In this document: one piece after another, positions 41,745 through 60,721 of the stretch | How the letters are laid out: every line of letters starts with the position of its first letter | Position numbering within the stretch: position 1 is the stretch's first letter | Virus record (IMG/VR): IMGVR_UViG_3300036760_000452 | Span: 1-60,729 of that record | DNA length: 60,729 nucleotides | Strand: one strand, 5' to 3' | Origin: a virus | Position numbers and translations under genes: made by a program | Notes under the pieces: model-generated | Databases searched by the model: none | Told to the model about the DNA's origin: nothing | Seen by the model: only the letters and a program-made list of their open reading frames with translations

Positions 41745-41775
41745 GGTCCTCTCCTTGCTGGGTGCGGCCCAGCGT

Positions 41776-42471
41776 TTATACAGTGACGCCTCGTCCTCGT
41801 GCCGGGGCCCATGCCCCACTCCTGCGCGCTCGCTTGGCGCCGTAAGCCATGAGGCGCTGGTACTCGGCCCAGTCCCCGTCGCTCACGGACTCCTCGATCT
41901 TACGCAGGATCCACGGTTCGATCCACCTCTTCACGTACTCGATCTGCGCCTGATGGTCGGCGCGCATCTTCTCCTCGCGCTTCTTCCGGAGCTCGATGTT
42001 CCGGTTGAATCGCGCGACGGTGAGCCGCTCGCGCTCCCACTTCCGTCGGCAGAAGCCGTACACGCCCCAGTCCCACGGCAGCACTTCGCCTGGACCGTTC
42101 GGCGCGAGCGGGTCGCCCTCGAAGAACTTGTCGAGGTAGTTCGGTGCGGGATGCTTCGCGCCCTGCGGCATCTCGACGTAGAAGCCGGCGCGCGAGTAGC
42201 GAGGGTCCGGGTAGTGCCGGCCGATGCCGACGTGGGCGACGAGGCGCACGCCGGAGTGGCCCGGTACCCTCCACGCCTGCACGCGCCACATGACGATCGC
42301 CCCGGCGTCGAACTCGTGCAGCGCCGCGGTGACGGCCGGGTCAGCAGCGAAGTTCGGCGGCGCGACGCACGTGTAGTGATCCTCGCCGACCTGCTCCCAG
42401 GCCTGCGGGAGCGACTCGGAAACCGCTGCGCGGCGCTCGTCGACGACCTTCAGCCAGTCGCGGTAGCTCAT
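41776..42471 (-). CDS. Hypothetical conserved phage protein, 231 residues
   Basis: The start is the ATG at 42471 (MSYRDWLKVVDERRAAVSES). It has a central Trp/Tyr-rich region (NYLDKFFEGDPLAPNGPGEV, GVYGFCRRKWERERLTVARF) and a long charged helix. I have no function; similar proteins of unknown role occur in podovirus structural operons. It overlaps the end of the fibre-like gene by 4 bases. Confidence 0.5.
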   Translation of the reverse strand: MSYRDWLKVVDERRAAVSESLPQAWEQVGEDHYTCVAPPNFAADPAVTAALHEFDAGAIVMWRVQAWRVPGHSGVRLVAHVGIGRHYPDPRYSRAGFYVEMPQGAKHPAPNYLDKFFEGDPLAPNGPGEVLPWDWGVYGFCRRKWERERLTVARFNRNIELRKKREEKMRADHQAQIEYVKRWIEPWILRKIEESVSDGDWAEYQRLMAYGAKRARRSGAWAPARGRGVTV

Positions 42472-44393
42472 GGTGTGCAAACCGGCGTGCCGGCAAACGC
42501 AGTCGTGATCCACACCGCGCCACTGCCGCCCGTGGCCGCCACTACGGTCACGCTGTCCCCGATGCCTGTGGCTACCCCGCCAATCACGAACGAAGTCCCA
42601 CAGGTGGTGTTTCCGAACATGATCGACTCCCCAGCGGCAGGAGCCAGCGTGATGTCCTGAGCGACGGTCGCTACGACGAGATACTGCGTCCCAATAGTGG
42701 GGTCGTTCGGCAGGTTGATGATCGAGCCGTCCGCATCGCCGGTGTTCGTATACAGCTCGCCGCTTTCCGTGATCGCTGGAGCCTTCGTAGTGGTGTTCGC
42801 TTCGACTGCCTGCCCAGGCAAAAAATAGCCCAGTCCGGCACCACCATTAGACACGCGAAGCTGTCCCAGCGCGTTTCGCACGAGGCCTACGTCGGCTCCT
42901 GTCGTACTCGGATCTCCAGAGGACCAGTTCACCTGAGCGTCGCTCTTCATCCGCTGAGCTGCGGTGTCCAAGTTCCACACTGCCGAGTTGGCTACGGACG
43001 CTGCGAGGTTCGAGGCACCGTTCAGCCACAAGCCCGTGTCGGGATCCGCCACAAAGCTATAGCTCGGGTCACCAACCGTGCCGCTCGCAACGCGGATACT
43101 TCCATTGCCGGATCCGCCGTCTGTCACCTTCACGATCCCCGCGGAAACGCGCGCGAGGCCGGTGTCCATGGTGCCAGCGTCCGCCGTCGAGGCGCTCGTC
43201 CAGCCCCACTGCCCAGTGTTGAACGTATACGCGGCGTAGGCCGAAGCATTCAAGCCGATGACGAATCGCACTAAGCCGCCGGTCTTGACGCGAAGCCCCT
43301 GGTTGGACCCTTCGATCGTATTCACATCGAAGTTGACACCACCAGTCGTGACGCTGTTCGCTACCAGCGCCCCAGTGCCAGCACCCCCATCCGTCACCTT
43401 CACAATGCCTGCGGCGGAGCGGGCGAGGCCGGCGTCTGAAGCCGCCCCAACCGCCCCCGAAGAGAAGGCGTACTGCTGTGCCGACGCGATCTGCGTTCCC
43501 AGGACCCCGAGGATCTGCGGCGACGACGTCAGCGCCGTCGCACTCCACGTCCCGACCGAGGCACCGGCCACGGCGAACCCGATGCCGGGCGCGGCCGAGT
43601 ACAGGCCGGTCGTGGTGGCCCCGGTGAAGCCGACGCTCGGAGCAGCGGCCGTGCCAGCGGGGACGATGAACGGCACCGTCGAGGTGAGGAGCGAATCGGT
43701 AAGCGTTAGGTCTACCTCGGCAGCGGCCCCCACGTCGAACTCCGTCTTGTCCTTCGAGAGCACGACACGATTCGAGGAAGTCGCCGCGTCGATCACCTCG
43801 AAGTCGATGACGGGGCTGCCGAGCGTGAAGGAGTTGGCCCTGACTCTGGTTGAGGTTGTTCCGTTCTGCCCCCACAGGATTGACAGCGTCGGCTGCACGT
43901 TGACGTAGGACGAACCGCCGCCCTGCAGGAAAGAGCTTGTGGCGTTGATCGTGGCTACGTTCGTTCCGCCGGAAGAGATGCCCAGGCTGTTCTCGCCGAT
44001 ACGGTAGAGGCCGGTATCGTTGCTCGTGTCGGTGCTGAACGTGAAGCTCGGCGCACCGACGGTTCCCGATGGCCCCAGGACCGGCAGGGTCGACGTGATC
44101 GCGGTCGTGGAGATGCTAAGCCGGTTCGCTCCAGACGTCCTGACGACCACGACCGCCGTCGCCGAAGAGCAGACCCCACTGGTCGCGTCCCCGGTGAAGC
44201 TGTACGGAGGCGCAAGGCAGTTGTCTGCGGCAGGCCCCAAAATCGGCGCCGTGATCGCCCCGCCCGTGAAGCTCGTCCCGCCTCCTGAGCCAGGGCCCGG
44301 TGGGTAGGCGGAGCCCTGCGCCAGCACCGTCACTGGAGTCGCCGTGAACGCGACCATCAGCCACAGCAGCAATCGCTTCCGGTCGAACCGCAT
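42468..44393 (-). CDS. Fibre-like repeat protein with Sec-type signal peptide, 641 residues
   Basis: The start is the ATG at 44393 after GGAGGTCGCG. The N-terminus RLLLWLMVAFTATPVTVLAQ is a signal peptide with LA-Q cleavage. The body has two repeat types: GTxGxPSxxFxxDTxTGLY units (near residues 105, 200, 485) and units of DxGLxRxxxGxxxVxDGGxGxG form. Both are frequent in phage tail fibres. A fibre made for export is odd; alternatives are a host-surface or secreted adhesin-like protein. Confidence 0.6.
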   Translation of the reverse strand: MRFDRKRLLLWLMVAFTATPVTVLAQGSAYPPGPGSGGGTSFTGGAITAPILGPAADNCLAPPYSFTGDATSGVCSSATAVVVVRTSGANRLSISTTAITSTLPVLGPSGTVGAPSFTFSTDTSNDTGLYRIGENSLGISSGGTNVATINATSSFLQGGGSSYVNVQPTLSILWGQNGTTSTRVRANSFTLGSPVIDFEVIDAATSSNRVVLSKDKTEFDVGAAAEVDLTLTDSLLTSTVPFIVPAGTAAAPSVGFTGATTTGLYSAAPGIGFAVAGASVGTWSATALTSSPQILGVLGTQIASAQQYAFSSGAVGAASDAGLARSAAGIVKVTDGGAGTGALVANSVTTGGVNFDVNTIEGSNQGLRVKTGGLVRFVIGLNASAYAAYTFNTGQWGWTSASTADAGTMDTGLARVSAGIVKVTDGGSGNGSIRVASGTVGDPSYSFVADPDTGLWLNGASNLAASVANSAVWNLDTAAQRMKSDAQVNWSSGDPSTTGADVGLVRNALGQLRVSNGGAGLGYFLPGQAVEANTTTKAPAITESGELYTNTGDADGSIINLPNDPTIGTQYLVVATVAQDITLAPAAGESIMFGNTTCGTSFVIGGVATGIGDSVTVVAATGGSGAVWITTAFAGTPVCTP

Positions 44394-44408
44394 CGCGACC
44401 TCCTCGAG

Positions 44409-44456
44409 AAGAGAAACACTCGCGGGGCGCCGGTCTGGATGGCGGCACCCCGCGAG
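44409..44456 (-). terminator. Intrinsic terminator
   Basis: On the minus strand CTCGCGGGG (44448..44456) pairs perfectly with CCCCGCGAG (44419..44427), with a 20-base loop that can extend the stem, followed by TGTTTCTCTT. This is a good Rho-independent terminator between the 111-residue virion gene and the fibre-like gene, so the head genes upstream would be read more than the tail genes downstream. Confidence 0.7.
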
Positions 44457-44464
44457 CAACGATA

Positions 44465-44800
44465 CTACGTCTGCAGCGGGATGCGGCGACCGTGCGCCGT
44501 GATCGCGTTGACGTAGCACACCTGGCTCGCGGCCGAGCCCACGATGTAGAGCGCCGCCAGATCCATCTGGAAGCTGCCCTGGTGATAGGGCCCGAAGCGC
44601 TTCGAAGCCCCCGCGTTGAGCTGCATCGTCGCGGCGACACCGTTGAGGTCCACCGTGACGGGCCCCAGGTAGACCTTCCCGCTGTTGTCCGGATCGGCGA
44701 CGAACTCGATCTCGAAGAGGTCCTGGCGGGTGTAGCTGATGACCGTGCTCACCTTCGCCCTCGTCGTCCCGCCGTTGAACTGCCCTGCCTTCAGAGCCAT
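44465..44800 (-). CDS. Small virion protein, 111 residues
   Basis: Beta-rich product (SYTRQDLFEIEFVADPDNSG, KVYLGPVTVDLNGVAATMQL) located after the capsid and a secreted protein. Its composition fits a decoration or head-completion protein. No signal peptide. Assigned from context. Confidence 0.5.
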   Translation of the reverse strand: MALKAGQFNGGTTRAKVSTVISYTRQDLFEIEFVADPDNSGKVYLGPVTVDLNGVAATMQLNAGASKRFGPYHQGSFQMDLAALYIVGSAASQVCYVNAITAHGRRIPLQT

Positions 44801-44857
44801 GTGGCCCTCCTTTTGCCCCCGGTCGTCTCTTCACGCCGGAGGACTTGGCGCGCGTTG

Positions 44858-45586
44858 TCAGTCTACGGGAGCTCCAGAGAAAAGCTGAATGTACCTCACC
44901 TGGCCCCCGACCAAAATCTTGAGGTAGCCATCGGGGGTTGTGGGCTCTGTCCCTGGCGTTGCGTTCCAGACGCCGGGCTGAGTGCTGGTGAGGTTCATGA
45001 GCGCGGTCCAGCTCTTGCTGTTCGTCTGGACCTCGGACTTCTCGATCTTGAACGGCACGAAGTTGCCGGTCACCGTACCGGAGAACGCCGTGCGGAAGCG
45101 CAGCCCGACAACGTCGCCGGAAACGGTGCGGGTCCCGGCGTCGTCGGTGACGAGCTCGATCTGCTGGCCGCGGACGTCCCCGGCGATGTTGCCGGTCGTG
45201 CCCTTCAGAAAGGCGTCGACGTGCGCGCCGATGAGCGATCCCGTCCCGGTCAGGGCGAACGTGTCGTTGACCCTCGGGCTCACCTCGAACCCGATCACGT
45301 TGTTCGCCATGCTCGCGCCCTGGGCCGGCTTCGACTGGAAGCCGATCCAGGAGTTGGCCGTCCCGGTGTTCGTGATGCTGTTGATCCGGACGGTTTCCCC
45401 GGCCTGGTCGGTGTTGGTAGGCCCGGCGTTGAGCTGCAAGTGCGTGCCAACGGTCGGGGTGATCGGACCCGTGAACGACGTCGGCGGAGCGGTGTAGCCG
45501 GACGACTGCCCGTACTGCGCCATCGCGACCGACGCGAGCATGAGCAGGGCCAGCAGCGCCATCCCGTACTTCTCGTACTTCCTCAT
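44858..45586 (-). CDS. Exported beta-rich protein after the capsid gene, 242 residues
   Basis: N-terminus (K)YEKYGMALLALLMLASVAM is a clear signal peptide with cleavage at AMA-Q. The body is beta-rich with Gly-Thr turns (GTANSWIGFQSKPAQGASMA, GLRFRTAFSGTVTGNFVPFK), related in style to the fibre-like protein downstream. Placing an exported protein directly after the capsid gene is unusual. Its gene is preceded by an operator-like site and a hairpin. Confidence 0.6.
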   Translation of the reverse strand: MRKYEKYGMALLALLMLASVAMAQYGQSSGYTAPPTSFTGPITPTVGTHLQLNAGPTNTDQAGETVRINSITNTGTANSWIGFQSKPAQGASMANNVIGFEVSPRVNDTFALTGTGSLIGAHVDAFLKGTTGNIAGDVRGQQIELVTDDAGTRTVSGDVVGLRFRTAFSGTVTGNFVPFKIEKSEVQTNSKSWTALMNLTSTQPGVWNATPGTEPTTPDGYLKILVGGQVRYIQLFSGAPVD

Positions 45587-45626
45587 TTTCGGTCTCCCTT
45601 CGTGGTCTGCTGTCTCAAGGCCGGAT

Positions 45627-45666
45627 GCTGTCCGGGATGGACACCTTCTAGCCCACCCCGGACAGC
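45627..45666 (-). other. Hairpin between capsid and exported-protein genes
   Basis: GCTGTCCGGG and CCCGGACAGC pair perfectly (10 bp) around a 20-base loop in the 108-base gap after the capsid gene. There is no T-tract, so it may slow or protect the RNA rather than end it. Such structures often raise capsid mRNA stability. Confidence 0.45.
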
Positions 45667-45681
45667 TTTGCTAGGCTCCTA

Positions 45682-45695
45682 AGCCCACGCGGGCT
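45682..45695. promoter_or_regulatory. Operator-like element after the capsid gene
   Basis: AGCCCACGCGGGCT matches the shared AGC-N8-GCT element, with perfect AGCCC/GGGCT arms around ACGC. It overlaps the capsid stop codon. A -10-like TAGGAG follows on the minus strand but no good -35 is present, so promoter activity is doubtful. It may also work as a hairpin in RNA. Confidence 0.4.
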
Positions 45696-46960
45696 CAGTC
45701 CCCGAGCACGGGATCGTTGAGGTCCTCGAGACGCGAATTGGACCTCGGCATAACGTTGATCTGGTTCTCGACGGAACCGACGTACGACAGGAAGCCGGCC
45801 TTGTGACCGTCCGCGTCGGAGCGGGGGATCATCTTCAGCAGGCTGTCGTCGTCGATCCAATCCAGAGGAAGGGCCTCGTACAGCCCGAAGGTCTCCCAGC
45901 ACAGGAAGAAGATCGCCCTCGGCTGGATGTCGAAGTCGACCTCGAGACGGACGTTGACGCCGGGCGCGAGGATCTGGAGGGACTCCTCGTCGTAGCCGAC
46001 GGTGTACGTCGGAGCGGATCCGGTGGGGCCGGGGTAGCGGCGCTCGGCCTGGATCATCTCGACGTACTTCCGCGCCTGGCCGTCGTTCGAGATGGCGCGG
46101 GTGATGCGCTTGCCGGTCTCCCGGCGGGGCTTGGAGATCGCGTCCAGGATGAGCTGCTCCGTGACGTCACGGAGTCCGCCGGAGCCGCGGAGCACGAACG
46201 CCTTGAGCTCCGGGTTGGTGCTGCGCGACTGGCCGAAGATCGTGACCACGTCGGTCCCGTCGTCGACGATGGCCGGCAGCGTCCAGTGGTTGCGGCCGTA
46301 GCTGCCGGTGATGAACACGCTGTCGCCGGGGGCGATCGTTGCGTCGTCGGCGCCGGCGTACGTGTAGCTGAAGGTGTCGCGGTTGAGGACCGTGATCTCG
46401 CGGTTCACCGCGACGCGGGCTGCGCCGCCCGTGAGGGCGGAGAAGTGGTCGATCCGCATGCGTCGGTTCAGCAGCTCCGTGCGCAGCGGGTCGGCCGTGG
46501 TGATGTTGGACGCGCCGTTGTTCGTCAGGACCACGGCCAGCCGGCCGAACAGCGAGCCGGCGTAGACCTTGTTGATGTACTTCCCGAGGTCCGACACGGT
46601 CCCCTCGACGCGGTCGGACAGGATGCCGCCCGAGGAGAAGGTCCCGATGTTGTTCTTCGCCGTCACCTTCGTCTTGAGGCCGATCTGGAAGGATCCGACG
46701 AACAGCTCCGGTGTGACCTCGCCCTGCACGCGCACGGGGTCGACCGGGGTGGGCATGTTGCCGACGTCGGCGATGGACGTGACGTTCCATGCGCTCGAGA
46801 TGCCGAGCGGGAACCTGGCGATGCCGTCGTGCATCTTCAGGTTCACGCGCTGGAGGCTCTTGCGGTACGGCGCCTCCTTGTTGACCGGGTCCTGGAAGGC
46901 GCCCGGGGGGTACGCGTTCTTCAGCTCCGTGGTGATGTCTTCGAATGCGCCTGTCGCCAT
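45695..46960 (-). CDS. Major capsid protein
   Basis: The product has 421 residues from the ATG at 46960. It is a two-domain alpha/beta protein with an extended N-arm (KNAYPPGAFQDPVNKEAPYR), a central beta-rich part (DSVFITGSYGRNHWTLPAIV) and a C-terminal part with typical capsid spacing (LPLDWIDDDSLLKMIPRSDA). Position right after the scaffold and before decoration-like genes supports the assignment. Fold type (HK97) is expected but not shown by a signature. Confidence 0.7.
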   Translation of the reverse strand: MATGAFEDITTELKNAYPPGAFQDPVNKEAPYRKSLQRVNLKMHDGIARFPLGISSAWNVTSIADVGNMPTPVDPVRVQGEVTPELFVGSFQIGLKTKVTAKNNIGTFSSGGILSDRVEGTVSDLGKYINKVYAGSLFGRLAVVLTNNGASNITTADPLRTELLNRRMRIDHFSALTGGAARVAVNREITVLNRDTFSYTYAGADDATIAPGDSVFITGSYGRNHWTLPAIVDDGTDVVTIFGQSRSTNPELKAFVLRGSGGLRDVTEQLILDAISKPRRETGKRITRAISNDGQARKYVEMIQAERRYPGPTGSAPTYTVGYDEESLQILAPGVNVRLEVDFDIQPRAIFFLCWETFGLYEALPLDWIDDDSLLKMIPRSDADGHKAGFLSYVGSVENQINVMPRSNSRLEDLNDPVLGD

Positions 46961-46985
46961 TTGGCGACTCCTCTCAACGCAGAGA

Positions 46986-48140
46986 TCACAGCCCCTTTGC
47001 CGCGAGCTTTTCGCGAGCTCGAAGCATCGAGGGGGCAATGTCCTGCAAGCCAAGAGCGGTGATGTTCTTCGGCGTGGCCGACGGCGTCGGGGGCCCAGGC
47101 CTACGTGGGGCCGCCGGAGCTGCAGGCTTCGCCGGAGCCGGGCTCGCACCCGGGGCTTGAAGTCTTCGCGTGGACTCGTCTCGGAAAGCGGCTCGCTTGG
47201 CCAGGTCACGCGACTTCGCGTAACGCCCGACCTCGGTTGCGATCAGGGCCTTTACGTCGACGTCTCCGATGTCGTCGCTCTGGCCCAACTTCCAGAACTT
47301 CATGGTCAGGCGAGGAATCACGGTGTCCTTGAGGTCCTGGAGGATCGCCTTGTCCTTGATCTGGAATGCCGAGGCGGCCTCGTCGATACCGGCCACCACT
47401 TCCTTCGGAAAGTCCTGCTCGAACTCCAGCCTTTCCCGCTCGGTTACTTCTTGACGTTGACCCTGCTTCGTGACGAGGTCCTCGGTCCAGGCCTTCTCGG
47501 ATGTGAGCCGATCGGCCTCGAACTTCAGACCGTCGCGCCGGTCGTTCAGGTCGTCGAACTTCTCGTGGAGCTCGGTCTTGCGACCTTCGAGATCCTCGAG
47601 ACGTTGCTCGAGCTGGGCGCGCGCGGATTCGTCGGCGTCGGTCAGCAAATGCTTCGCGACGGCGATCTTTCCGTTGACCTCCCCGATGGCCACCAAGCAC
47701 TTCTGCTGGCTACCGTAGAGCCTCTCGTCCGTCTGGGTCAGGGTCGTGATGCGGGCGTCGATCTGCACGACGTCCGGATGTGGCTTGGCGGGGTCGGTCT
47801 TCGGTGCGCGTTCGGCGCGCAGCCGCTCGTTCTCCGCCTCGAGCTTCTCGTTTTCCTGACGGACCTGGGAAGCGAAACGCGTCTTCTCCAGGAACGTCCG
47901 GCCGATCGCTGCTTTTCGCTCCTTCTCGTCCGTGATGGTCTTGAAGCGATCGGCGAGGAACTTCCACTCGTCCGGGTCGTCGTCGGCGCCTTCCGTCCGC
48001 GCCGCGGGGGCTGCTCCGTCGGCGGGCGGGTCGGTGGCTTCCCCCGGTTCGGCCGGAGGTGTGTCGAGGGGTGCGTCCCCCGGTTCGTCTACCTGGACAG
48101 GTTCGTCGAGGACGTCGCTGCCAGGGAGGTCGTCGGGCAT
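46986..48140 (-). CDS. Scaffolding protein
   Basis: The product has 384 residues: acidic, Pro-rich N-terminus; a long coiled coil (ENEKLEAENERLRAERAPKT, RAQLEQRLEDLEGRKTELHE); a basic, Pro/Ala-rich C-terminus. This is the usual plan of a capsid scaffold, and the gene precedes the capsid gene. The GTTAC-N5-GTAAC site lies 50 bases upstream of its start. Confidence 0.65.
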   Translation of the reverse strand: MPDDLPGSDVLDEPVQVDEPGDAPLDTPPAEPGEATDPPADGAAPAARTEGADDDPDEWKFLADRFKTITDEKERKAAIGRTFLEKTRFASQVRQENEKLEAENERLRAERAPKTDPAKPHPDVVQIDARITTLTQTDERLYGSQQKCLVAIGEVNGKIAVAKHLLTDADESARAQLEQRLEDLEGRKTELHEKFDDLNDRRDGLKFEADRLTSEKAWTEDLVTKQGQRQEVTERERLEFEQDFPKEVVAGIDEAASAFQIKDKAILQDLKDTVIPRLTMKFWKLGQSDDIGDVDVKALIATEVGRYAKSRDLAKRAAFRDESTRRLQAPGASPAPAKPAAPAAPRRPGPPTPSATPKNITALGLQDIAPSMLRAREKLAAKGL

Positions 48141-48189
48141 CTCTTGCTCCTCTGCGAGGTGCGGCCTCGCCTATTGGAGCGAAGGATGC

Positions 48190-48204
48190 GTTACTTTCGG
48201 TAAC
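48190..48204. promoter_or_regulatory. Palindromic site GTTAC-N5-GTAAC before the scaffold gene
   Basis: GTTACTTTCGGTAAC has perfect 5-base arms and differs from the control-region palindrome at 11267..11281 only in its centre. It lies in the 67-base gap between the GroES and scaffold genes. The shared form of the two sites suggests that one regulator sees both the early control region and the start of the capsid genes. Confidence 0.5.
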
Positions 48205-48207
48205 AGG

Positions 48208-48531
48208 TCAAGCGGCTTGTGGCTCTACAGCCACAGCCTGGTCCTGCTTCGACACCATGAGGACTTCATCCTCGCGGAGCAGCACCAGCAGCGGATCGAG
48301 CTCGGGAAGCTCCACGCCGCTGAAGTGGCCGAACATGACCTCGTCGCCGACTCCCACAGTGAGAGAGACGAGGCTGCCCGTCTCGAGGCACAGGCGCCCG
48401 GGTCCGGCTGCGACCACGACGCCGATGCGCTGCGGCTTCTCGGAGCCTTCGGGGATTGCGATGCCGCCCCTTTCCTTCTCCGGGTCGCGCCTGCGAACGA
48501 GAAGCTTGTCGAACATCGGTTGCCAGTTCAT
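48208..48531 (-). CDS. groES: GroES-like co-chaperonin
   Basis: The product has 107 residues with the Cpn10 plan: FDKLLVRRRDPEKERGGIAI (mobile loop GGI), PEGSEKPQRIGVVVAAGPGR, VGDEVMFGHFSG, and the final strand REDEVLMV. Phage GroES relatives (as gp31 of T4) let the host GroEL fold the capsid protein. It sits directly upstream of the scaffold and capsid genes. The C-terminal tail (QDQAVAVEPQAA) is an extra. Confidence 0.85.
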   Translation of the reverse strand: MNWQPMFDKLLVRRRDPEKERGGIAIPEGSEKPQRIGVVVAAGPGRLCLETGSLVSLTVGVGDEVMFGHFSGVELPELDPLLVLLREDEVLMVSKQDQAVAVEPQAA

Positions 48532-48534
48532 GCC

Positions 48535-48831: not shown

Positions 48832-48840
48832 GGCTCCTCC

Positions 48841-49014: not shown

Positions 49015-49017
49015 GGT

Positions 49018-49236: not shown

Positions 49237-49240
49237 TCGA

Positions 49241-52598: not shown

Positions 52599-52628
52599 CT
52601 CAGGCTCCGGAGAGGGAGGATAGCACCA

Positions 52629-54125
52629 CTACCGCGCTCCTGGCCAGACGTGCTGTGGGCTGACCTTCTCGCGCTCCTTCATCTTCGCCTTGATCTTCTT
52701 GTGCATGAGGCGGCTCTCGAGTTCGAGCTGGCTCTTCGGTGGAACCTCGGCTTGGGCCTCGCGTGCCTCGTAGCTCCACCCGCGCGGCTGCAGGTAGTTG
52801 AGGCCCTGCGTCGTCATGTCGACGTAGTCGTCGTTCGGCGCGAGCGGGAAGTCGCGGAACTCCTGCACGAGCTCCTTCGAGTAGCGCGCGGCGCGCGGGA
52901 GGTAGACGCGCTTGTCCTCGATGAGCCCGGCCACGGAGTTGACCTGCCAGTGGAGCCGCACCGTTTTGCTGCCGTGCGCCGGCATCGGCAGAATGTGCTT
53001 CAGCTCGTGGTGCAGGAGTTGGATGATCGCTGCGCCGTTGGCCGTCTCCTCAATCAGGATCTTCCTGGCCTGGCGCCACCGCGCGTTCATCGCGCGGATC
53101 TCCTTGATCGTAGCGGAGATCCCCATTCTCCGGTGAACGCAGTCGAGCAGGTAGTACTTGTTGCCCTTCCGGCCCCAGGCGCCGCCGCACACGAAGTCGG
53201 CCGTGGCCACGTCCTTGAACGTCGTGTCCCACGTGAGGATCACGTCGTCGAGCTCGTCGGGGACCTCGTCGTACCACTGCCACCACTCGGGGTTGATGGC
53301 GAAGCCCTCGATCGGAGTCGGCCGCTGCTGGATGAGCGCGTTCCCGGCAGCCGTGCCAAGCCGGCGGATCTCTCCAGAGAGAAAGTCCTCGTCGAACTTG
53401 CCCGGCCAGAGCGCCTCTCCGGGCGCGCGGCCCAGAGGATCGTCCTCCTCCGCTAGTCCTGGCAGTCGGAGCACGCGCCATTCGTTCGCGGTTTCGCTCG
53501 CGAGAATCGCGCCCGCCAGATCGTCGGTCGCCCAGCGCGTCATGATGAGCACGCAGATCGTGTCCGGGCTGTCGCGCCGGGTCATGAGCGTGGTGTTGAG
53601 CCACTCGTAGATGGCCTTCTTGATCGTCGGAGAGGCTGCCTCCTCGGCGTTCTTGATCGGGTCGTCGACGATCAGCACGTCCGCGCGGCGGCCCATGATC
53701 GGGCCCCCGACGCCGGCCGTGACCATGCCTCCGTGTTCCTTCGTCTCCCAGCGGTTGCCCGCCCGGCTGTCCTCCATGAGGCTCACGCCGATCGTCGGGA
53801 AGTGCTCCTCCACCGTGCGGCGCGCGTCGGTGCCCCACTTCTTCGCGAAGTCGGCTTCGTAGCTCGTCTCGATGATCCGCGTCGCCGGCTCGAGGGAGAG
53901 GTTCCAGACCGGGAACCAGTGCGAGCAGGTCTCGCTCTTGGCGTGGCCAGGAGGCATGAACACCATCAGGTTTCTTGGCCAGTCCTTCTCGCGCTTCCAG
54001 AGCTGCACAAGTTCGTCGTTGAGTAGCCGGAGGTGGGGAGGGGCGGAGTACGGCTTCGGCGTAGTCGCAGTCAGCGCGACGGCGAGGTGTAGCGGGCCGA
54101 GTAGGTGTTCATGCGCGCTCTGCAT
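52629..54125 (-). CDS. terL: Large terminase subunit
   Basis: The product has 498 residues. ATPase: a deviant Walker A MPPGHAKSE (residues 57-65), Walker B DVLIVDDP (149-156), coupling motif around LIMTRWATDD (193-202). Nuclease: LTWDTTFKD (D300), then a second acidic site (DDYVDM, about 432-437). It cuts and drives DNA into the procapsid through the portal. It overlaps the small terminase by 17 bases. Confidence 0.85.
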   Translation of the reverse strand: MQSAHEHLLGPLHLAVALTATTPKPYSAPPHLRLLNDELVQLWKREKDWPRNLMVFMPPGHAKSETCSHWFPVWNLSLEPATRIIETSYEADFAKKWGTDARRTVEEHFPTIGVSLMEDSRAGNRWETKEHGGMVTAGVGGPIMGRRADVLIVDDPIKNAEEAASPTIKKAIYEWLNTTLMTRRDSPDTICVLIMTRWATDDLAGAILASETANEWRVLRLPGLAEEDDPLGRAPGEALWPGKFDEDFLSGEIRRLGTAAGNALIQQRPTPIEGFAINPEWWQWYDEVPDELDDVILTWDTTFKDVATADFVCGGAWGRKGNKYYLLDCVHRRMGISATIKEIRAMNARWRQARKILIEETANGAAIIQLLHHELKHILPMPAHGSKTVRLHWQVNSVAGLIEDKRVYLPRAARYSKELVQEFRDFPLAPNDDYVDMTTQGLNYLQPRGWSYEAREAQAEVPPKSQLELESRLMHKKIKAKMKEREKVSPQHVWPGAR

Positions 54126-54549
54126 CTATCGTGACCATATCCCCCTCGTCGTCGCCGGCGACGAGCTGACGCTGTGGCGACGACCTAGGGAGCGTGTGCC
54201 GGAGCCTCAGCCCCTTGAGCGCCTTCAGTGCGGCCTCGCGCACTTCGAGGGTCCGCTTGTCAGCCGCTACGGTGTCTCGGCTCTCGTGCGGCTTGCCGTA
54301 GGCGAAGAGCCACAGCAGGTTCTCGATCGGGCCCGCGTCGCCACTGCGCAGCCGCGCCATGAGGTTCTTCCGGTACGCGGGGTCAGCGATGATCTTGAGC
54401 GCGGTCGCGCGGCCGTCGCGCTTCTCCGCATTCGTCATGCGGTTCTTCGAACCCTTCGGCCGGCCCGCGCCCCTCTTCAGGTTGTCTGGATTCCCGGTCG
54501 CGTTCGGGTTGGTGACGGTGCCCGGTCCCGTCCCGGGATAGACCGACAC
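54109..54549 (-). CDS. Small terminase subunit (putative)
   Basis: The product has 146 residues with KRGAGRPKGSKNRMTNAEKR near the start, a motif shared with small terminase and related DUF5681-type proteins of many phages, then helices (RKNLMARLRSGDAGPIENLL, EVREAALKALKGLRL). It lies immediately upstream of terL. It should recognise the packaging site. Confidence 0.65.
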   Translation of the reverse strand: MSVYPGTGPGTVTNPNATGNPDNLKRGAGRPKGSKNRMTNAEKRDGRATALKIIADPAYRKNLMARLRSGDAGPIENLLWLFAYGKPHESRDTVAADKRTLEVREAALKALKGLRLRHTLPRSSPQRQLVAGDDEGDMVTIDAERA

Positions 54550-54552
54550 GAA

Positions 54553-54837
54553 TCAGACCTCGGTCTCGCCCGCGACCTCGCGAACCTGGTAGGTCTGGCC
54601 GTCCATGCCGAACGCCGTGATCGCCTGCCGCCACTTCCCGGGCTCGCAGAGGAACACGATGCGCTCTGACGGCTGCCTGCGCCACGCCGGCTGCCAACCC
54701 GCTTCTCTAATCGCCTTCGAGAGCCCCAGCATGTCGGAGTCCGACAGCAGCTTCGCGCCGTAGGCTTCGGCGTTGTTCGGCAGCTCTCGGACTTCCGCTC
54801 CCCAGCCGTACGTCCGATCGCCGACCTTGACCAGCAT
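54553..54837 (-). CDS. Hypothetical protein, 94 residues
   Basis: Product (LVKVGDRTYGWGAEVRELPN, KLLSDSDMLGLSKAIREAGW, VFLCEPGKWRQAITAFGMDG) alpha/beta without named family. It lies between a 114-residue protein and the small terminase gene. Function unknown. Confidence 0.5.
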   Translation of the reverse strand: MLVKVGDRTYGWGAEVRELPNNAEAYGAKLLSDSDMLGLSKAIREAGWQPAWRRQPSERIVFLCEPGKWRQAITAFGMDGQTYQVREVAGETEV

Positions 54838-54863
54838 GGCTCCCCTCCTGCCCGAGTATAGCG

Positions 54864-55208
54864 CTAGAGCCGGATGACGGCCCCGACTTCCTTGCGCGTG
54901 TTGCCTGTGCCGAGGTCGTGCGTCAGCACGCCTACGAACGTGAAGTCAATCTTCCGCCTGAAGAGCGTGCCGACGTCCTTGCGCACCATCACGGCGCCGC
55001 GGATCGAGCCCTTGCTCCCGTCTCCGGGGTCCTGGTACGTCACAACGACCGCAGCGTTTTGGTCGACCTTCAGGTTCGCCGACGCGATGGCCGCGTCGAT
55101 GTTCCTCGCTACCTGGTCGTCTCCGAACTTCCGGATCTCGGAGCCGTCACGGGCGGTGCCGACGACCTTGTAGCTGTAGGGACTAGCGATCTGGGCAGGC
55201 GTGCTCAT
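54864..55208 (-). CDS. Hypothetical beta-rich protein, 114 residues
   Basis: The ATG at 55208 overlaps the holin candidate's stop. The product has alternating strands (YSYKVVGTARDGSEIRKFGD, VVVTYQDPGDGSKGSIRGAV) and no motif. It might be a small virion or assembly protein. Start chosen from the overlap. Confidence 0.5.
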   Translation of the reverse strand: MSTPAQIASPYSYKVVGTARDGSEIRKFGDDQVARNIDAAIASANLKVDQNAAVVVTYQDPGDGSKGSIRGAVMVRKDVGTLFRRKIDFTFVGVLTHDLGTGNTRKEVGAVIRL

Positions 55209-55576
55209 CCGTTGAGGCCGTGCTGGTCGAAGGTGCTCTTCGCCTCGCGAAGAGCGATGGCCACGAGGCCAAGTGCGAAGCCCTTCCAGCCGCCGGGGGC
55301 TGCGCTGCCACCGTACGTGCCGAGCCAGCCGAGCAACGACCCCAACAGCGGCGGGATGGCCCACACCGCCATCCTGGGCAGGCCAGGAGCGAAGTGGCGG
55401 ATTGCCTGAGTCATGAACGGAAGGCCGGCGGCGAAGAGGGCGGCGACGAGCGCCTGCGGGTCGAGAAACGAGGCTGCCGCAGGGACGGCGTCTTGGGCCC
55501 AGACGAGAACCGGGCTAAGGACTGCACTGAAAAGCACGAGCGCCAGGAACGCCCAGTTCCGGAGAATGGTCTTCAT
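55205..55576 (-). CDS. Holin candidate, 123 residues
   Basis: The ATG at 55576 follows a purine-rich site. The N-terminus (NWAFLALVLFSAVLSPVLVW) is a membrane segment or signal with AQ after it; two or three further hydrophobic stretches follow (ALVAALFAAGLPFMTQAIRH; VWAIPPLLGSLLGWLGTYGG; GFALGLVAIAL), and the end is polar. Size and topology suit a holin. The position upstream of terminase, not next to an endolysin, makes this uncertain. Confidence 0.45.
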   Translation of the reverse strand: MKTILRNWAFLALVLFSAVLSPVLVWAQDAVPAAASFLDPQALVAALFAAGLPFMTQAIRHFAPGLPRMAVWAIPPLLGSLLGWLGTYGGSAAPGGWKGFALGLVAIALREAKSTFDQHGLNG

Positions 55577-55578
55577 CT

Positions 55579-57294
55579 CTACCTCTCGATCTTCAGCGGT
55601 TGCTGCCCGCCCGCGAGACACAGGTTGTCCCCGTTGCTCGAGGGAGTCGTGCACGTGACGACGCCGGAGCCCGAGCCGATCACGCGAAACTGGAAGACGT
55701 TCTCCGTTGTCACCAGCTCCAGCGCGCTGCCCGGCTGTTGCGTCAGAAGGTACGCCGGCGGCGCCCCACCGCACGCCATGATCTCGCACGCGAGACGTTC
55801 GCTATCGCCCTCTGGCCTGATCGGCTGGCCGTGCGCCTTCGGCGTGCAGTCCCAGAGGCCCTGGCCGGCCTGGTGGAGCTTGCAGACGATCTCGTCGACC
55901 GTTGGAACGTCACCTACACAGATGCTCGGAGTCGGATTCGTTCCTTGGTAGGTCCAGGTGTTTTTCGGGAGCGCAAGCGGATCCTGAGCCCAGCACCCGG
56001 TCGCGAACGAGACCGCGTGGTACTCCTCCCACTTCCCGGCCGGCGTGAGGATCCCGAGAGCATCGGCCCAGGGCCCGCTCGCGCAGTAACCCTGCTTCCG
56101 TAGCTCGGCGGCCAGTAGCCCCAGGGTAGCGAGTGATCCCTGGTGATCCGTCCCGCAGTGCTCACCCACGATCGTCTCCGCAGCAGCTACGACGCCCCGC
56201 ATCGCGCCGCCGCCTGCAACTGGAGGGGTTACCCAGAGCGGGTCCTCGGCTTCGGGAGCGAAGCAGCCGACGGGGATCGCGTCCTCACCCCGGAAGAGCT
56301 TGAGCGTCTGCTCCATCTGCTCGTCCGTCTGCTCCGCACGCCAGTACCAGTAATTGAGCCCGGCGTCGCGGGCCCGCCGGAAGTTGGAGAACTCCTGCTC
56401 CACTGAGAACTGCGGGTTGCGCTCGTTGTTCTCGGTGTGCTTCCCGGAGATCGCCGCCGTCAGCGACTCGCGCGCGTGCGTCGCGCAGTAGTCGAACGGC
56501 CCGTCGCAGAAGTCGGTGTTGTTCGTCCCCACCAAATGGATCACGGGGCCGCATGGGAGCTTCTGCTCTTCGTCGCGGATGACGCTCAGGTTCCACTCGT
56601 ACCACGCGCGCTTCGTGCCACGGATCTCTCCACCCTCGTTGTCGGTCAGCCAGATGACGTTCTGGTAGCAACCCAGCTCGGAGACGACCTTCCTGATGAA
56701 GCGTTCCTGCTCCGGGCTCGCGGAGATCCCGCAGGCGTCGATGTCGCTCTGCGGCCACGGCATCTTCTGGTCTCCCCAGTTCGACGCAGCGTGCTTGCAG
56801 TACCAGGTGTCGATGTCCACCACTTCGACTACTGCCTTCGCCTTGCCTGCGTGTTCGACCAGCTCGACGACCTTCTTCCAGAAGGCCGGATTGAAGTCCG
56901 GGCCGTCCCCGAGGTAGGGTCCACCAACGTCGTCCCACTCGTCTTCATCTTCCACGCCAGCTCTCGCGTAGAAGGGGCCCATTCGGAAATGGAAGAGATC
57001 GGCCTTCGTGTAGTCCATCCACGACTCGCTCGCGAGCGGCCAGCGCGAGTTGCCGACCTGCGGCGGGGCTGGCATGCAGCACTGCACCGCGCCGAACGGC
57101 TCCCAGGCCACGCCCCCGCGGGTTAGATGCGGCGGGCTCGGCTGGCGGACGAGTAGCTCGGGAAAGTAGTTGACAACGGGCGGCGGCGGGGGCGGCTGGG
57201 GTGGGGTGGGCGGCTGGGGTCTCGGATTGCCGCTGCAGGAGGTGACGCCGGCGAGCGCCAGCGCGACGGCTGTGCGGCGAATCATGTCGATCAT
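55579..57294 (-). CDS. Lipoprotein with glycosidase-like barrel domain, 571 residues
   Basis: MIDMIRRTAVALALAGVTSC followed by SGNP is a signal with lipobox VTSC, then a Pro-rich stalk. The main part (about 60-480) looks like a TIM barrel: KAKAVVEVVDIDTWYC, YQNVIWLTDNEGGEIRGTKR, WYWRAEQTDEQMEQTLKLFR; N-E-G as in retaining glycosidases is visible but the family is not fixed. The C-terminal 90 residues are a separate beta domain. It may act on a surface polysaccharide. Confidence 0.55.
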   Translation of the reverse strand: MIDMIRRTAVALALAGVTSCSGNPRPQPPTPPQPPPPPPVVNYFPELLVRQPSPPHLTRGGVAWEPFGAVQCCMPAPPQVGNSRWPLASESWMDYTKADLFHFRMGPFYARAGVEDEDEWDDVGGPYLGDGPDFNPAFWKKVVELVEHAGKAKAVVEVVDIDTWYCKHAASNWGDQKMPWPQSDIDACGISASPEQERFIRKVVSELGCYQNVIWLTDNEGGEIRGTKRAWYEWNLSVIRDEEQKLPCGPVIHLVGTNNTDFCDGPFDYCATHARESLTAAISGKHTENNERNPQFSVEQEFSNFRRARDAGLNYWYWRAEQTDEQMEQTLKLFRGEDAIPVGCFAPEAEDPLWVTPPVAGGGAMRGVVAAAETIVGEHCGTDHQGSLATLGLLAAELRKQGYCASGPWADALGILTPAGKWEEYHAVSFATGCWAQDPLALPKNTWTYQGTNPTPSICVGDVPTVDEIVCKLHQAGQGLWDCTPKAHGQPIRPEGDSERLACEIMACGGAPPAYLLTQQPGSALELVTTENVFQFRVIGSGSGVVTCTTPSSNGDNLCLAGGQQPLKIER

Positions 57295-57295
57295 G

Positions 57296-58090
57296 CTACC
57301 TCACGTAGGTTACGCCGACGGTCACGCGCTCGCGGTTTGCGCCGGCGTCGCTCGCGTCGGCGCCGGCCGTTCCGACCTTCAGCCCAACTCTGCAGGACGC
57401 GAATCCGCTCTGTGGCGAGAGCTGGTAGATGAAGCGCGAGTTGACTCCGGCGGTCGCGAAGCGGCAGATGTCCGTCGAGAGCGTGCCGAAGCCACATGTC
57501 GCTCCGGGGCCAGGGTAGACCACCGTCGGCGCGGCGCCGAGGAAGTTGCCCTTGCACTGGATCTGCGCGTCGAGACCGACCGTGAGGTCGCCCTGGTCGT
57601 ACTGGACCCAGAAGAGCACGCTCCCATCGGGAGACGGTACGAGCGGGACCCAGCCGTCGTTGACGGTGGTGCCGCTCGAGAACTTCTTCCAGCCGAAGGT
57701 GACCCCGGTCGTTGGCAACGTCCAGACCGTGTCGACGGAGACCTGCACGGAGCTCGTGAAGACGTCGATCACGCGCTCGGGTCGCGTGCCGTCCGCCATG
57801 TTCGCGATGAGCACGTCGCCGACCGCGAGGCCAGCGAACGGCGTCCCGCTCACGGCGGTCGTCACCACGGTTGAGAGGCCGGCAGTCGTGATCGACGCGC
57901 TGCCGAGCATCGGGCCGCCGAAGACGCTGTTGTTGAGCCCGGTGAGCTTCGTGTAGGTCTGGGTCAGCGAGTCGACGTCGAAGGCGAAGGCAAGGTTGCC
58001 TGTCCCCGTGTCGGTCTGCTGTGCCTGCGTGGGAAGCGCGAGAAGCCCGATCACGAGCGCGGCAAGGAGCAGCGCGGAGCGGCGGAGCAT
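57296..58090 (-). CDS. Exported protein, 264 residues
   Basis: Start ATG at 58090 after AGGAGGG. Signal peptide MLRRSALLLAALVIGLLALP followed by TQAQQ. The mature part is beta-rich (TPFAGLAVGDVLIANMADGT, GSVLFWVQYDQGDLTVGLDA) with four Cys in the last third (CKGNF, CGFG, CRFA, CRVG) that could pair. Function unknown. It lies between RusA and the lipoprotein and is co-transcribed with them. Confidence 0.55.
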   Translation of the reverse strand: MLRRSALLLAALVIGLLALPTQAQQTDTGTGNLAFAFDVDSLTQTYTKLTGLNNSVFGGPMLGSASITTAGLSTVVTTAVSGTPFAGLAVGDVLIANMADGTRPERVIDVFTSSVQVSVDTVWTLPTTGVTFGWKKFSSGTTVNDGWVPLVPSPDGSVLFWVQYDQGDLTVGLDAQIQCKGNFLGAAPTVVYPGPGATCGFGTLSTDICRFATAGVNSRFIYQLSPQSGFASCRVGLKVGTAGADASDAGANRERVTVGVTYVR

Positions 58091-58145
58091 GTACCCTCCT
58101 GGTTCTCTGCGAGTTTGCTCCCGTTGGCTCGAGAGTGTCAAGCCG

Positions 58146-58595
58146 CTAGAGCTTTGCAATCTCGATCCAGACGCGCGGGACACCACGGTGAACGGGGTGC
58201 GTATCGTAGATCCCGTCGGGGTGACGCCCGCCGGCGTACATCTTCACCGTGCGGCCGTCGACGACCTGGCCATCGTCCTTCCAGATGCCAGAATTCGTAA
58301 GCGCGTCCATCACCGCACGCTCAAGTTTGTCGCGGTCCGGCCTCCCGGCCGGGTACTCGACGCTCTTCTTCGCGCTCTTCGGACGCGGCATGAAGAACGT
58401 CAGATTCACGCGCACGGGGCCCTCAATCGGAGACGCCATCCCGCGCGCCTGGATAGCCGCGGCGTACACGAGGTACTTCCACGGCCGCGTCTTCGGGTTG
58501 TCGGACGTGACTACGGGGTGCTGTCGTCCCTTCACGTTGAAGGCTCTCATTGAGCCTTGCGGCGCAGCGACTCCGCAGACTACGAAGGAGATCAT
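58146..58595 (-). CDS. rusA: RusA-family Holliday junction resolvase
   Basis: The product has 149 residues with the RusA pattern: an N-terminal strand with GVAAPQGSMRAFNVK, then GRPDRDKLERAVMDALTNSG and IWKDDGQVVDG, including the conserved Asp residues (D..K..D, then DD.Q). These dimers resolve four-way junctions. It should assist in concatemer processing made by RecE/RecT recombination. Its ATG overlaps the preceding stop. Confidence 0.85.
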   Translation of the reverse strand: MISFVVCGVAAPQGSMRAFNVKGRQHPVVTSDNPKTRPWKYLVYAAAIQARGMASPIEGPVRVNLTFFMPRPKSAKKSVEYPAGRPDRDKLERAVMDALTNSGIWKDDGQVVDGRTVKMYAGGRHPDGIYDTHPVHRGVPRVWIEIAKL

Positions 58596-58933
58596 ACGAG
58601 CCCCGAGTTCTCTTCAGCTGCCTCCGGCACCTTGCCCGTCTTGCCTGACGCGATGTCGCAGAAGAGGCAACGCTCGCCGACTTCGTGCACGCGCAGGAGC
58701 CGCTGCCGCGTCTCGAAGACCTGCGTCTCTTCGGTGTGCGAGCGGTTCATCGCCTCGTTCCACACGGCCTTCGTATCGTTCGCCGGCAGCGCCGACTCGT
58801 AGCTCATGGCCCAGCCGACGAACGTGAAGCCGTGCGCCACGAGGCGCCTCGGCTCTTGTTGTCCGGCGTCGTTCCAGCACGCCGGATCGGAGCAGGGCGG
58901 GCCGCCGTGATTGCCGTCGCACACCTCATGCAT
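58592..58933 (-). CDS. Zinc-binding hypothetical protein, 113 residues
   Basis: ATG at 58933 preceded by AGGAGGCGAAG. The N-terminus has MHEVCDGNHGGPPCSDPACW, and the C-terminal part VGERCLFCDIASGKTG: three to four Cys plus His, probably one zinc. The middle is helical. Coupled to rusA. Function unknown. Confidence 0.55.
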   Translation of the reverse strand: MHEVCDGNHGGPPCSDPACWNDAGQQEPRRLVAHGFTFVGWAMSYESALPANDTKAVWNEAMNRSHTEETQVFETRQRLLRVHEVGERCLFCDIASGKTGKVPEAAEENSGLV

Positions 58934-59405
58934 TCTTCGCCTCCTGCGCAAGCTGCACCTTCGCCATGATCTGCTCCGCGTGCTCGATCTTCTCCGAGAC
59001 CGCGTGGTAGCGCGCCTGCAGGTCCTCGACCGTGCTCGCGAGCATCTCGGACTCTTGGCCGAGCTTCGTGAGCTCGGAACTGGACTCGAACAGAATCACA
59101 CTCGCCTCGTCGATCAGGTTGCCGAGGTCGACGAGCTTCGCTTCGGGCGTCTCGTACGGCTCATCTCCGGAGGGGTCGTACGTCAGCGTGAAGATGTCCG
59201 GCTTGCATGGGTAGAACTCGCCCTTCACGCCGCGGATCACCCAGTCTCCTGGAGTCACCTCCATCGCGCCTTCGGACGTCTGGATCCGCGGCGTGTCGCC
59301 GAAGAAGCTCACCGGCTGCCCTGTGAACTCCACGATCGGCTGCACGTCCCCGCCGGTCCACTGCACGGCCTCGATCACTACCGGCTTCTTCCTGAATTTC
59401 GGCAT
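58926..59405 (-). CDS. Conserved phage protein, N-terminal PGDW-type beta domain, 159 residues
   Basis: Starts MPKFRKKPVVIEAVQWTGGD and has TPGDWVIRGVKGEFYPCKPD, the typical sequence of a small beta domain found in very many phages, with no known role. The C-terminal half is a coiled coil (STVEDLQARYHAVSEKIEHA) not present in most relatives. Confidence 0.7.
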   Translation of the reverse strand: MPKFRKKPVVIEAVQWTGGDVQPIVEFTGQPVSFFGDTPRIQTSEGAMEVTPGDWVIRGVKGEFYPCKPDIFTLTYDPSGDEPYETPEAKLVDLGNLIDEASVILFESSSELTKLGQESEMLASTVEDLQARYHAVSEKIEHAEQIMAKVQLAQEAKNA

Positions 59406-59420
59406 GTCGCGCCTCCTAGG

Positions 59421-59446
59421 GAGCCGGCGGGAGGGACCGCCAGCTC
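59421..59446 (-). other. Stable hairpin after the Cys-rich exported gene
   Basis: GAGCTGGCGG (minus strand) pairs with CCGCCGGCTC over 10 positions, counting a T.G wobble, around a 6-base loop. It lies between the exported gene (stop at 59471) and the start of the next gene. No T-tract follows, so it is a weak terminator or RNA-stabilising element. Confidence 0.4.
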
Positions 59447-59470
59447 GAACGAGGTACGAGTCTGGTTGGC

Positions 59471-60721
59471 TTAGTTGACGGCGCAGTAGAAGCGATACCG
59501 CGTCTGCTGACCCTGCTGATATCCCTGGATTCCGAGGATCTCGGCGAAGGCCGTCGCGTTGTTGCAGACTTGCCCGTTGATCGCCCAGAAGTCCTGCGGG
59601 CACTGGCCGTTGTTGGGCAGTCCATTCTGATCGGATGGCGTGAGGTGGTTGTTGTGGCCTGGGTTGCCCTCTGGGTAGAGGTAGTTGAACGTCGTCGTCT
59701 GGATCGAGATGGCCCCGAAGTCGTTCGCAGTGTCGGGAGTCCCGTTGGCCGCGACGTGGCAGAACGTGAGCTCGCAGCGATCGTACCCGGTGGTCGTCAC
59801 CGTGTCCGTCAGCTCCTCGGCCTCGGTGCACGAGTTCTGCGTGTAAGTCTTGACCGTCTTCGTCCTGGACTTCTGGCTGATGCCGTTCACGATCGCACAC
59901 GCCCCGTAGTCAGAGTAGGTCGTCGTCGTGCGAGTTGTGAACGTCGGCTCGCACGGTGGCGGCGTCGGACACGCCACGTTCCGGCAGAGATCGACCACGC
60001 GCTCACCGTCAGCCTGACAGGTGTAGTCGATCGCCCACTTCTGCGTGCCGGTCTGGTGGCAGTTCAGCGCCGGAGCGATGGCATCGATGACAACCGGCAG
60101 CACTTCCTGCTCACACTGGCCATCGAGGGTTTCGTAGTTCCACGAGTAGGCCCCGGGCGTCGTCGGTGTCTCACGCGGCTCGACGCACGGCCTCGCGTTG
60201 CAGGCCGTGCGGATCTCGTCGTTGATCCGCGAAACCCTCTTCCCGTTCTGGTCGTAGTATGCAGCCGCGATCGGCAGGCCTCCGGGCCCATACTGCGTGA
60301 TGTCGAGCTGCAAGCAGCCCCGGTCGAACGTGTCGATGAAGTGGTCACCGTTCTGGATGATCGCGTGTTTCACGTCGCGCGCCAGATCTTGGTTGTCGAA
60401 GTCGGTCCAATAGGCCCAGAACTCCGAAGTGAAACCGTTGTTGTTCGCGACGTCCCATGAGGCGTTGTTTCCGAACGTGACCGTGACGCCACCGCCCTCC
60501 CCTGGAGGCTGCACGACTGTCGGCGTCGACGGCACGGGCGTTGCGACGCTCGCGACCGGCGCTGGAGCCCCGGTCGTTGGATTCGTCGGTCCCGAGACCG
60601 TACCCGTCCCGCCACACCCGCTCGTGTAGAACGCGTACGACACCAGCACGGCACCGAGGACGATCCCCGCCGCCATGCGCCACCTGTCCTGCTTGCGCCT
60701 CCCGATCGTTCGTCTCGTCAT
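59471..60721 (-). CDS. Cys-rich exported (lipoprotein-like) protein, 416 residues
   Basis: An N-terminal basic stretch, then MAAGIVLGAVLVSYAFYTSG followed by C, an imperfect lipobox (TSGC), then a Ser/Thr/Pro linker. The mature part has over 15 Cys (CLQLD, CNARPCVEP, CQADGERVVDLCRNVACP) and a Thr-rich repeat-like stretch (FTTRTTTTYSDYGAC). It appears extracellular with disulphides. It is the first gene after the replication operon on the circle and overlaps it by ATGA. Confidence 0.55.
   Translation of the reverse strand: MTRRTIGRRKQDRWRMAAGIVLGAVLVSYAFYTSGCGGTGTVSGPTNPTTGAPAPVASVATPVPSTPTVVQPPGEGGGVTVTFGNNASWDVANNNGFTSEFWAYWTDFDNQDLARDVKHAIIQNGDHFIDTFDRGCLQLDITQYGPGGLPIAAAYYDQNGKRVSRINDEIRTACNARPCVEPRETPTTPGAYSWNYETLDGQCEQEVLPVVIDAIAPALNCHQTGTQKWAIDYTCQADGERVVDLCRNVACPTPPPCEPTFTTRTTTTYSDYGACAIVNGISQKSRTKTVKTYTQNSCTEAEELTDTVTTTGYDRCELTFCHVAANGTPDTANDFGAISIQTTTFNYLYPEGNPGHNNHLTPSDQNGLPNNGQCPQDFWAINGQVCNNATAFAEILGIQGYQQGQQTRYRFYCAVN

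What the first reader, a model, noticed from the sequence alone, without database searches (positions are those of the whole stretch)
42468..60721. A phage secretome: five Sec-signal or lipobox proteins in the late operon
Signal peptides or lipoboxes are visible at the N-termini of genes 42468..44393, 44858..45586, 55579..57294, 57296..58090 and 59471..60721. Two more exported small proteins lie at 8203..8412 and 14547..14885. Most phages export only a lysis lipoprotein or an exclusion factor. Here roughly 6.5 kb of late sequence encodes exported proteins, some placed directly beside the capsid gene. They may remodel the host surface, block superinfection, or be assembled on virions outside the cell.
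Basis: partly seen in the sequence, partly recalled or inferred. Interest (0 to 1): 0.7.

Follow-up and report, generated by a model that had tools for sequence, protein, structure and literature searches.

The report
Phage late operon encoding exported proteins
An uncultivated tailed phage and its relatives carry an unusually large set of late genes whose proteins bear convincing export signals, including fibre-like proteins beside the capsid gene and a lipoprotein that looks like a sugar-cleaving enzyme, so these phages probably rework the outside of the infected cell late in infection.

Summary
All five late N-termini are Sec signal peptides or lipoboxes behind plausible starts. My scorer of 31 late genes exported, against 0.4-1.3% background. 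Three independent signs agree. The residue after the predicted cut is Gln in 25 of 26 late type I proteins of the window and relatives. Exported proteins are Cys-rich (2.14 vs 0.48 per 100) with mostly even Cys counts. Signal peptides persist while their sequence drifts. The set recurs in related uncultivated phages; one has seven exported genes in a row beside an endolysin gene. The capsid-adjacent slot holds an exported fibre-like protein in five lineages and a non-exported protein in eight. The 44858..45586 C-terminal domain occurs in other phages without a signal peptide, so here an export signal is joined to an otherwise non-exported phage domain. The 55579..57294 lipoprotein is a probable clan GH-A glycosidase (barrel fold, both catalytic Glu conserved). 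Best reading: a late export module acting on the host envelope, with fibre-like proteins as receptor or surface decoys and lipoproteins aiding release. Export is well supported; function is inferred. Assembly on virions outside the cell is possible but unsupported.

The parts
59471..60721 (-). Lipoprotein (416 aa), lipobox TSG|C, 16 further Cys, Thr/Pro-rich linker, C-terminal Cys-rich repeat
   Evidence: Lipobox call (30); homologues L014 6139-7128 (32%; my scorer gives it a type I signal with Cys one residue past the cut, so its lipobox is not classical), G004 554-1573 (35% over 70 aa, clear lipobox), L026 5930-6817 (weak similarity, clear lipobox). Start 8 b from contig end; alternative ATG 60676 lies within the same N-terminus
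57296..58090 (-). Sec-exported protein (264 aa), signal peptide cut TQA|QQT, 4 Cys in the mature part
   Evidence: AGGAGG start; SP; family in G001, G002, G003, G004, G007, G009, members examined all with a signal peptide
55579..57294 (-). Lipoprotein (571 aa): lipobox VTS|C, Pro-rich linker, probable clan GH-A (GH5-like) barrel about 45-340 with Glu220 and Glu291, Cys-rich tail
   Evidence: lipobox; invariant Glu in L044, L045, L046; model; GH5/GH-A matches
55205..55576 (-).
   Evidence: homologues upstream of the small terminase gene in G002 (32-33%) and G004 (28-33%), both with SP; a similar gene in L012
44858..45586 (-). Sec-exported protein directly after the capsid gene: SP (AMA|QYG) + short linker + about 190-aa domain
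   Evidence: the domain is 59% identical to L025 11294-11938 at the same slot without SP and is found without SP in L033-L042 and virus Rctr197k
42468..44393 (-). Sec-exported fibre-like protein (641 aa), SP (VLA|QGS), repeats of the GAPSFTFSTDTSNDTGLY type, 4 Cys in the mature part
   Evidence: AGGAGG start; SP; PHROG 28766 tail fiber 9.5e-12; repeats
44465..44800 (-). Non-exported 111-aa protein between the two exported genes, 71-77% identical in L002, L007/L008 and L011 where the slot also holds an exported fibre; diverged copies (35-36%) in L022 and L019
45695..46960 (-). Major capsid protein (context)
   Evidence: PHROG 14242 major head protein 2.1e-20; relatives
14547..14885 (+). Early exported small protein (SP PVRA|DVF)
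8203..8412 (-). Small protein with N-terminal signal/anchor

Best explanation
The phage carries a late export module. Shown by sequence: six late proteins bear Sec (type I) or lipoprotein (type II) signals, and the same gene families bear them across a group of related uncultivated phages. Inferred: the host Sec system, signal peptidases and lipoprotein machinery move them to the periplasm and outer membrane while virions are being built in the cytoplasm. There the Pro-rich-linked lipoproteins, one of them a probable GH-A glycosidase, would cut or restructure envelope or surface polysaccharide. The exported fibre-like and (in relatives) lectin-like proteins would occupy surface glycans or receptors from the inside or on the surface. 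The most likely benefit is cleaner release and protection: opening the envelope at lysis and hiding receptors from sister virions and on debris, in the manner of T5 Llp but with fibre or lectin domains.
For: Signals in 6 of 31 late genes against 0.4-1.3% background. Gln at +1 in 25 of 26 late type I proteins, as in hosts that follow the Q-rule (PMC5837995). Cys enrichment, Fisher p 1e-11, and 13 of 14 type I proteins with an even Cys count. Between L007 and L011 the signal peptide is 8/22 identical while the first mature residues are 22/27 identical, typical of a real signal peptide. Conserved families and positions in relatives. GH-A barrel with Glu after strand 4 and Glu after strand 7 invariant. 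Exported genes next to endolysin and TM genes in G001, and next to TM genes upstream of the small terminase gene in several relatives. Laminin-G lectin domains on exported proteins in relatives.
Against: No SignalP, proteomics or host. No receptor or substrate known. The glycosidase model is low confidence overall (mean pLDDT 49.7) and matches are by fold, about 10% identity. The exported fibres share no detectable domain with a non-exported fibre of the same phage, so a receptor-decoy role is not shown. Gln at +1 was partly read by eye, although the scorer, which ignores +1, gave Gln for all four window proteins. The enzyme part is missing from the equivalent lipoproteins of L005, L010/L013 and L014, so not every phage of the group would have it.
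Confidence: 0.5

Rival explanations
1. Exported fibre-like proteins are virion parts that are secreted first and bind to capsids after lysis, as an extracellular decoration step.
For: They sit directly after the capsid gene in five lineages, in the slot that holds a non-exported protein in eight others. The 44858 domain is 59% identical to a non-exported protein in exactly that slot in L025.
Against: Exported and assembled pools would meet only after lysis. In G001 (L005) and G004 (L025) the slot has a non-exported protein and the exported fibre gene lies elsewhere. No precedent found in the papers searched.
Confidence: 0.13
2. The exported proteins mainly serve lysis: the Pro-rich lipoproteins act like outer-membrane spanin or envelope-cutting components, with the SP/TM protein as holin, and the fibre-like ones are passengers.
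For: Lipoprotein + TM-coiled-coil + two-TM genes lie together before the small terminase gene in L014/L004 and L005. Exported run beside an endolysin gene in G001. GH-A barrel.
Against: Lipoproteins of 330-570 aa are far larger than known o-spanins. The window has a separate spanin-like gene at 22951..23349 (phrog_739, E 0.002). GH5-type enzymes are known for glucans and mannans rather than peptidoglycan (general knowledge).
Confidence: 0.2
3. Host-modifying cargo unrelated to release (moron-like): secreted adhesins or enzymes that change the host's surface or feeding during a long or lysogenic infection.
For: GH5-like and laminin-G domains; variable gene content and position.
Against: No relative of the capsid protein in the 84,980-species genome collection, so no sign of a prophage; genes are inside the late structural operon. 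An integrase was not searched for systematically.
Confidence: 0.12
4. The N-terminal hydrophobic stretches are membrane anchors or virion-assembly segments, not cleaved export signals.
For: Cleavage is predicted, not shown; 55205..55576 could be a plain TM protein.
Against: Gln at +1 in 25 of 26, lipoboxes with Pro-rich linkers, Cys enrichment and parity, and conservation pattern.
Confidence: 0.05

Closest known systems
Porphyromonas gingivalis phages (Nixviridae) with five exported proteins obeying the Q-rule (PMC10367356)
   Same: Several phage genes with signal peptides whose cut exposes Gln; proposed to alter the host envelope
   Different: Functions unknown there and host known; here the set includes lipoproteins, a GH-A-like enzyme, fibre-like and laminin-G proteins, placed within or beside the late structural genes and recurring over a phage group
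T5 Llp superinfection-exclusion lipoprotein (PMC9586334)
   Same: Phage-encoded lipoprotein acting from the periplasmic side of the outer membrane
   Different: Llp is a small receptor-blocking protein; here large multi-domain lipoproteins with no known receptor. The likeness is of supposed role only, not of sequence
Phage o-spanins such as lambda Rz1
   Same: Lipobox followed by a Pro-rich stretch, near TM genes
   Different: These are 330-570 aa with globular and Cys-rich domains
Glycoside hydrolase family 5 / clan GH-A enzymes
   Same: Predicted barrel, Glu after strand 4 and after strand 7
   Different: About 10% identity, no Pfam match, no substrate known, carried on a phage lipoprotein
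Phage tail fibre proteins of PHROG 28766 with PSYSF-DTGLY-type repeats
   Same: Repeat region of 42468..44393
   Different: This one has a Sec signal peptide

Membership tests
Sec/SPase I exported proteins | Positive n-region, hydrophobic h-region, small residues at -3/-1 | tested here: met
   Window 42468, 44858, 55205, 57296
Sec/SPase I exported proteins | Cleavage and export shown by experiment | not testable with these tools
   No host or proteomics
Bacterial lipoproteins (SPase II) | Lipobox with invariant Cys after h-region | tested here: met
   55579 VTS|C and 59471 TSG|C; homologues L005, L014 (7181), L045, L046, G004
Clan GH-A glycoside hydrolases (GH5-like) | (beta/alpha)8 barrel | tested here: met
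   Model 45-340, Z 13.2 to GH5 3ziz; model confidence moderate in the barrel, low elsewhere
Clan GH-A glycoside hydrolases (GH5-like) | Acid/base Glu after strand 4 and nucleophile Glu after strand 7 | tested here: met
   E220 (TDNE) and E291 (NNERNP), invariant in four family members
Clan GH-A glycoside hydrolases (GH5-like) | Sequence match to a curated GH family | tested here: not met
   No Pfam hit at E 0.1; so described as GH-A-like, not filed as GH5
o-spanin | Short outer-membrane lipoprotein paired with an i-spanin | tested here: not met
   330-570 aa; the window's spanin-like gene lies at 22951..23349, about 32 kb away
Q-rule signal peptides | Gln at +1 after SPase I cut | tested here: met
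   25 of 26 late type I proteins, some cut sites set by eye
Phage tail fibre / virion protein | Present in the virion | not testable with these tools
   No virion proteomics
T5 Llp-type exclusion factor | Blocks a receptor or superinfection | not testable with these tools
   No host

The most novel reading that the evidence does not exclude
Tailed phages of this group secrete fibre proteins through the host Sec system so that they fold and form disulfides in the periplasm and join the virion only after lysis, a split-compartment route of virion maturation.
Probability: 0.12. Interest if true: 0.85.

Novelty: new variant of a known kind. Interest (0 to 1): 0.55.

Why it matters
Phage proteins are mostly thought to act in the cytoplasm or virion. 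A recurring set of six or more exported late proteins, including a run of seven consecutive exported genes in one relative and a probable lipoprotein glycosidase, suggests that some phages spend much late-operon space on the host's outside. It gives testable candidates for envelope breaching, receptor shielding and release, and asks why phage structural-type domains have been put behind secretion signals.

Tried and rejected
Nucleotide match to known phages: none. tblastn of the exported proteins in known phages: none except the 44858 domain in Rctr197k. Capsid-based and glycosidase-based scans of bacterial/archaeal genomes: no relative, so host unknown. The genome search 'relatives' does not work for a virus record. 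PDB sequence searches with 55579 and 42468: none. Anti-phage defence library: none. An early thought that the 111-aa gene 44465 occurs only with exported fibres was dropped: L019 has a diverged copy with a non-exported slot protein. A thought that exported fibres are decoys of the phage's own non-exported fibre found no shared domain. Paper searches for Sec-exported fibres or structural proteins of tailed phages found no precedent.

Full report
What the window is. It is a 60.7-kb IMG/VR virus record, 66% GC, of a tailed phage with no close nucleotide match among known phages. The late operon runs leftward from 60721 to about 23000 and holds terminase, portal, a GroES-like gene, scaffold, capsid (45695..46960, PHROG major head protein, E 2e-20), tail and internal virion genes (portal, GroES-like and scaffold are named from sequence and position).

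Check of the observation. I built a simple signal scorer (charge, hydrophobic core, AxA or lipobox). It called 19 of 19 known E. coli signals, 0.42% of internal segments and 1.26% of shuffled N-termini. Annotated genes of HMO-2011 and N4 gave 0 of 64 and 3 of 52. Starts have ribosome sites except 60721, which is 8 bases from the contig end.

Independent signs that the signals work. (a) The residue after the cut is Gln in all four type I proteins of the window's late operon, by a scorer that ignores that position, and in 25 of 26 late type I proteins of the window and relatives, some cuts set by eye. This is the Q-rule known from Bacteroidetes, with a continuum elsewhere (PMC5837995), and the same argument was used for Porphyromonas phages (PMC10367356). 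(b) Exported proteins hold 2.14 Cys per 100 residues against 0.48 for other late proteins (p = 1e-11), and 13 of 14 type I proteins have an even number. Homologues are not independent, so these counts are a guide. (c) Between L007 and L011 the signal peptide is 8 of 22 identical and the following 27 residues 22 of 27.

Relatives. Capsid searches gave a group of uncultivated phages, mostly 58-71% identical in the capsid protein. The 57296 family occurs in six of ten records, and the members examined carry a signal peptide. Lipoproteins with Pro-rich linkers lie upstream of the small terminase gene in L005, L010, L013, L014 and L012/L046, followed in several by TM-coiled-coil or two-TM genes. 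In G001 seven exported genes stand in a row (43445 to 35397), right after a TM gene and an endolysin gene (phrog_17001, E 2.6e-12); two of them carry laminin-G domains and one an SO2946-like domain. One of the seven (41189..42649) was missed by the scorer and is called by eye (MRTAIFLLAIALSAFVA|QDY).

The slot after the capsid gene. In the window, L002, L007/L008, L011 and L022 it holds an exported fibre-like protein, mostly beginning QY after the cut; in L004, L005/L006, L010/L013, L012, L019, L021, L023 and L025 it holds a non-exported protein. In L025 that protein is 59% identical to the mature part of 44858..45586, with no signal peptide and no upstream start in frame. The same domain is found without a signal peptide, behind varied N-termini, in L033-L042 and in virus Rctr197k. 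So the window joins an export signal to a domain that elsewhere is an ordinary non-exported phage protein. In G001 and G004, however, exported fibre-like genes lie away from the capsid gene, so the capsid slot is only one of their positions.

The 55579 lipoprotein. Four family members share invariant Glu220 and Glu291. The model is weak overall (mean pLDDT 49.7) but shows a beta/alpha barrel over about 45-340 with these residues after strands 4 and 7. Foldseek's best matches are GH5 enzymes (E 6e-4) and VIA-align gives Z 13.2 to a GH5 mannanase, with clan GH-A enzymes filling the list. No Pfam match. I call it a probable clan GH-A glycosidase, not a GH5 member. A more distant lipoprotein in G004 (23%) keeps the NE motif. 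In L005, L010/L013 and L014 the lipoprotein in this place has other, Cys-rich domains instead.

Mechanism. Shown: signals, families, positions, Cys pattern, probable glycosidase. Inferred: export through host Sec and lipoprotein machinery late in infection; action on the envelope; receptor or glycan occupation by fibre-like and lectin-like proteins; help at release. Late timing is read from gene position only. The extracellular virion-decoration reading is not excluded. No host, substrate or receptor is known.

Verdict. Real, wider than reported, and a new variant of a known kind (phage-encoded exported proteins).

Noticed in passing
window 48208..48531: GroES-like co-chaperonin gene between portal and scaffold, kept in most relatives (34-47% identity).
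   Followed up: partly
window 22951..23349 and 23342..23617: Probable spanin-like gene (phrog_739, E 0.002) and a small TM gene at the end of the late operon; the TM gene has a look-alike next to the exported 57296 homologue in G002 (45705..45965).
   Followed up: partly
window 14882..15238: Small early protein with an HEAIH zinc-metallopeptidase-like motif, overlapping the end of the exported gene 14547..14885.
   Followed up: no
window 26006..33109: Very large (2367 aa) internal virion protein gene without a single Cys (phrog_6651 match near its end).
   Followed up: no
window 23946..25226: Virion structural protein with its best relatives in cyanophages and HMO-2011 (phrog_1645, E 9e-90).
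   Followed up: no
L005/L006, L010/L013, L012, L004, L019, L021, L023 after the capsid gene: Non-exported proteins of about 270-340 aa with a lectin-like look fill the capsid-adjacent slot.
   Followed up: partly
L021 3438..3956: HNH-endonuclease-like gene inserted directly after the capsid gene.
   Followed up: no
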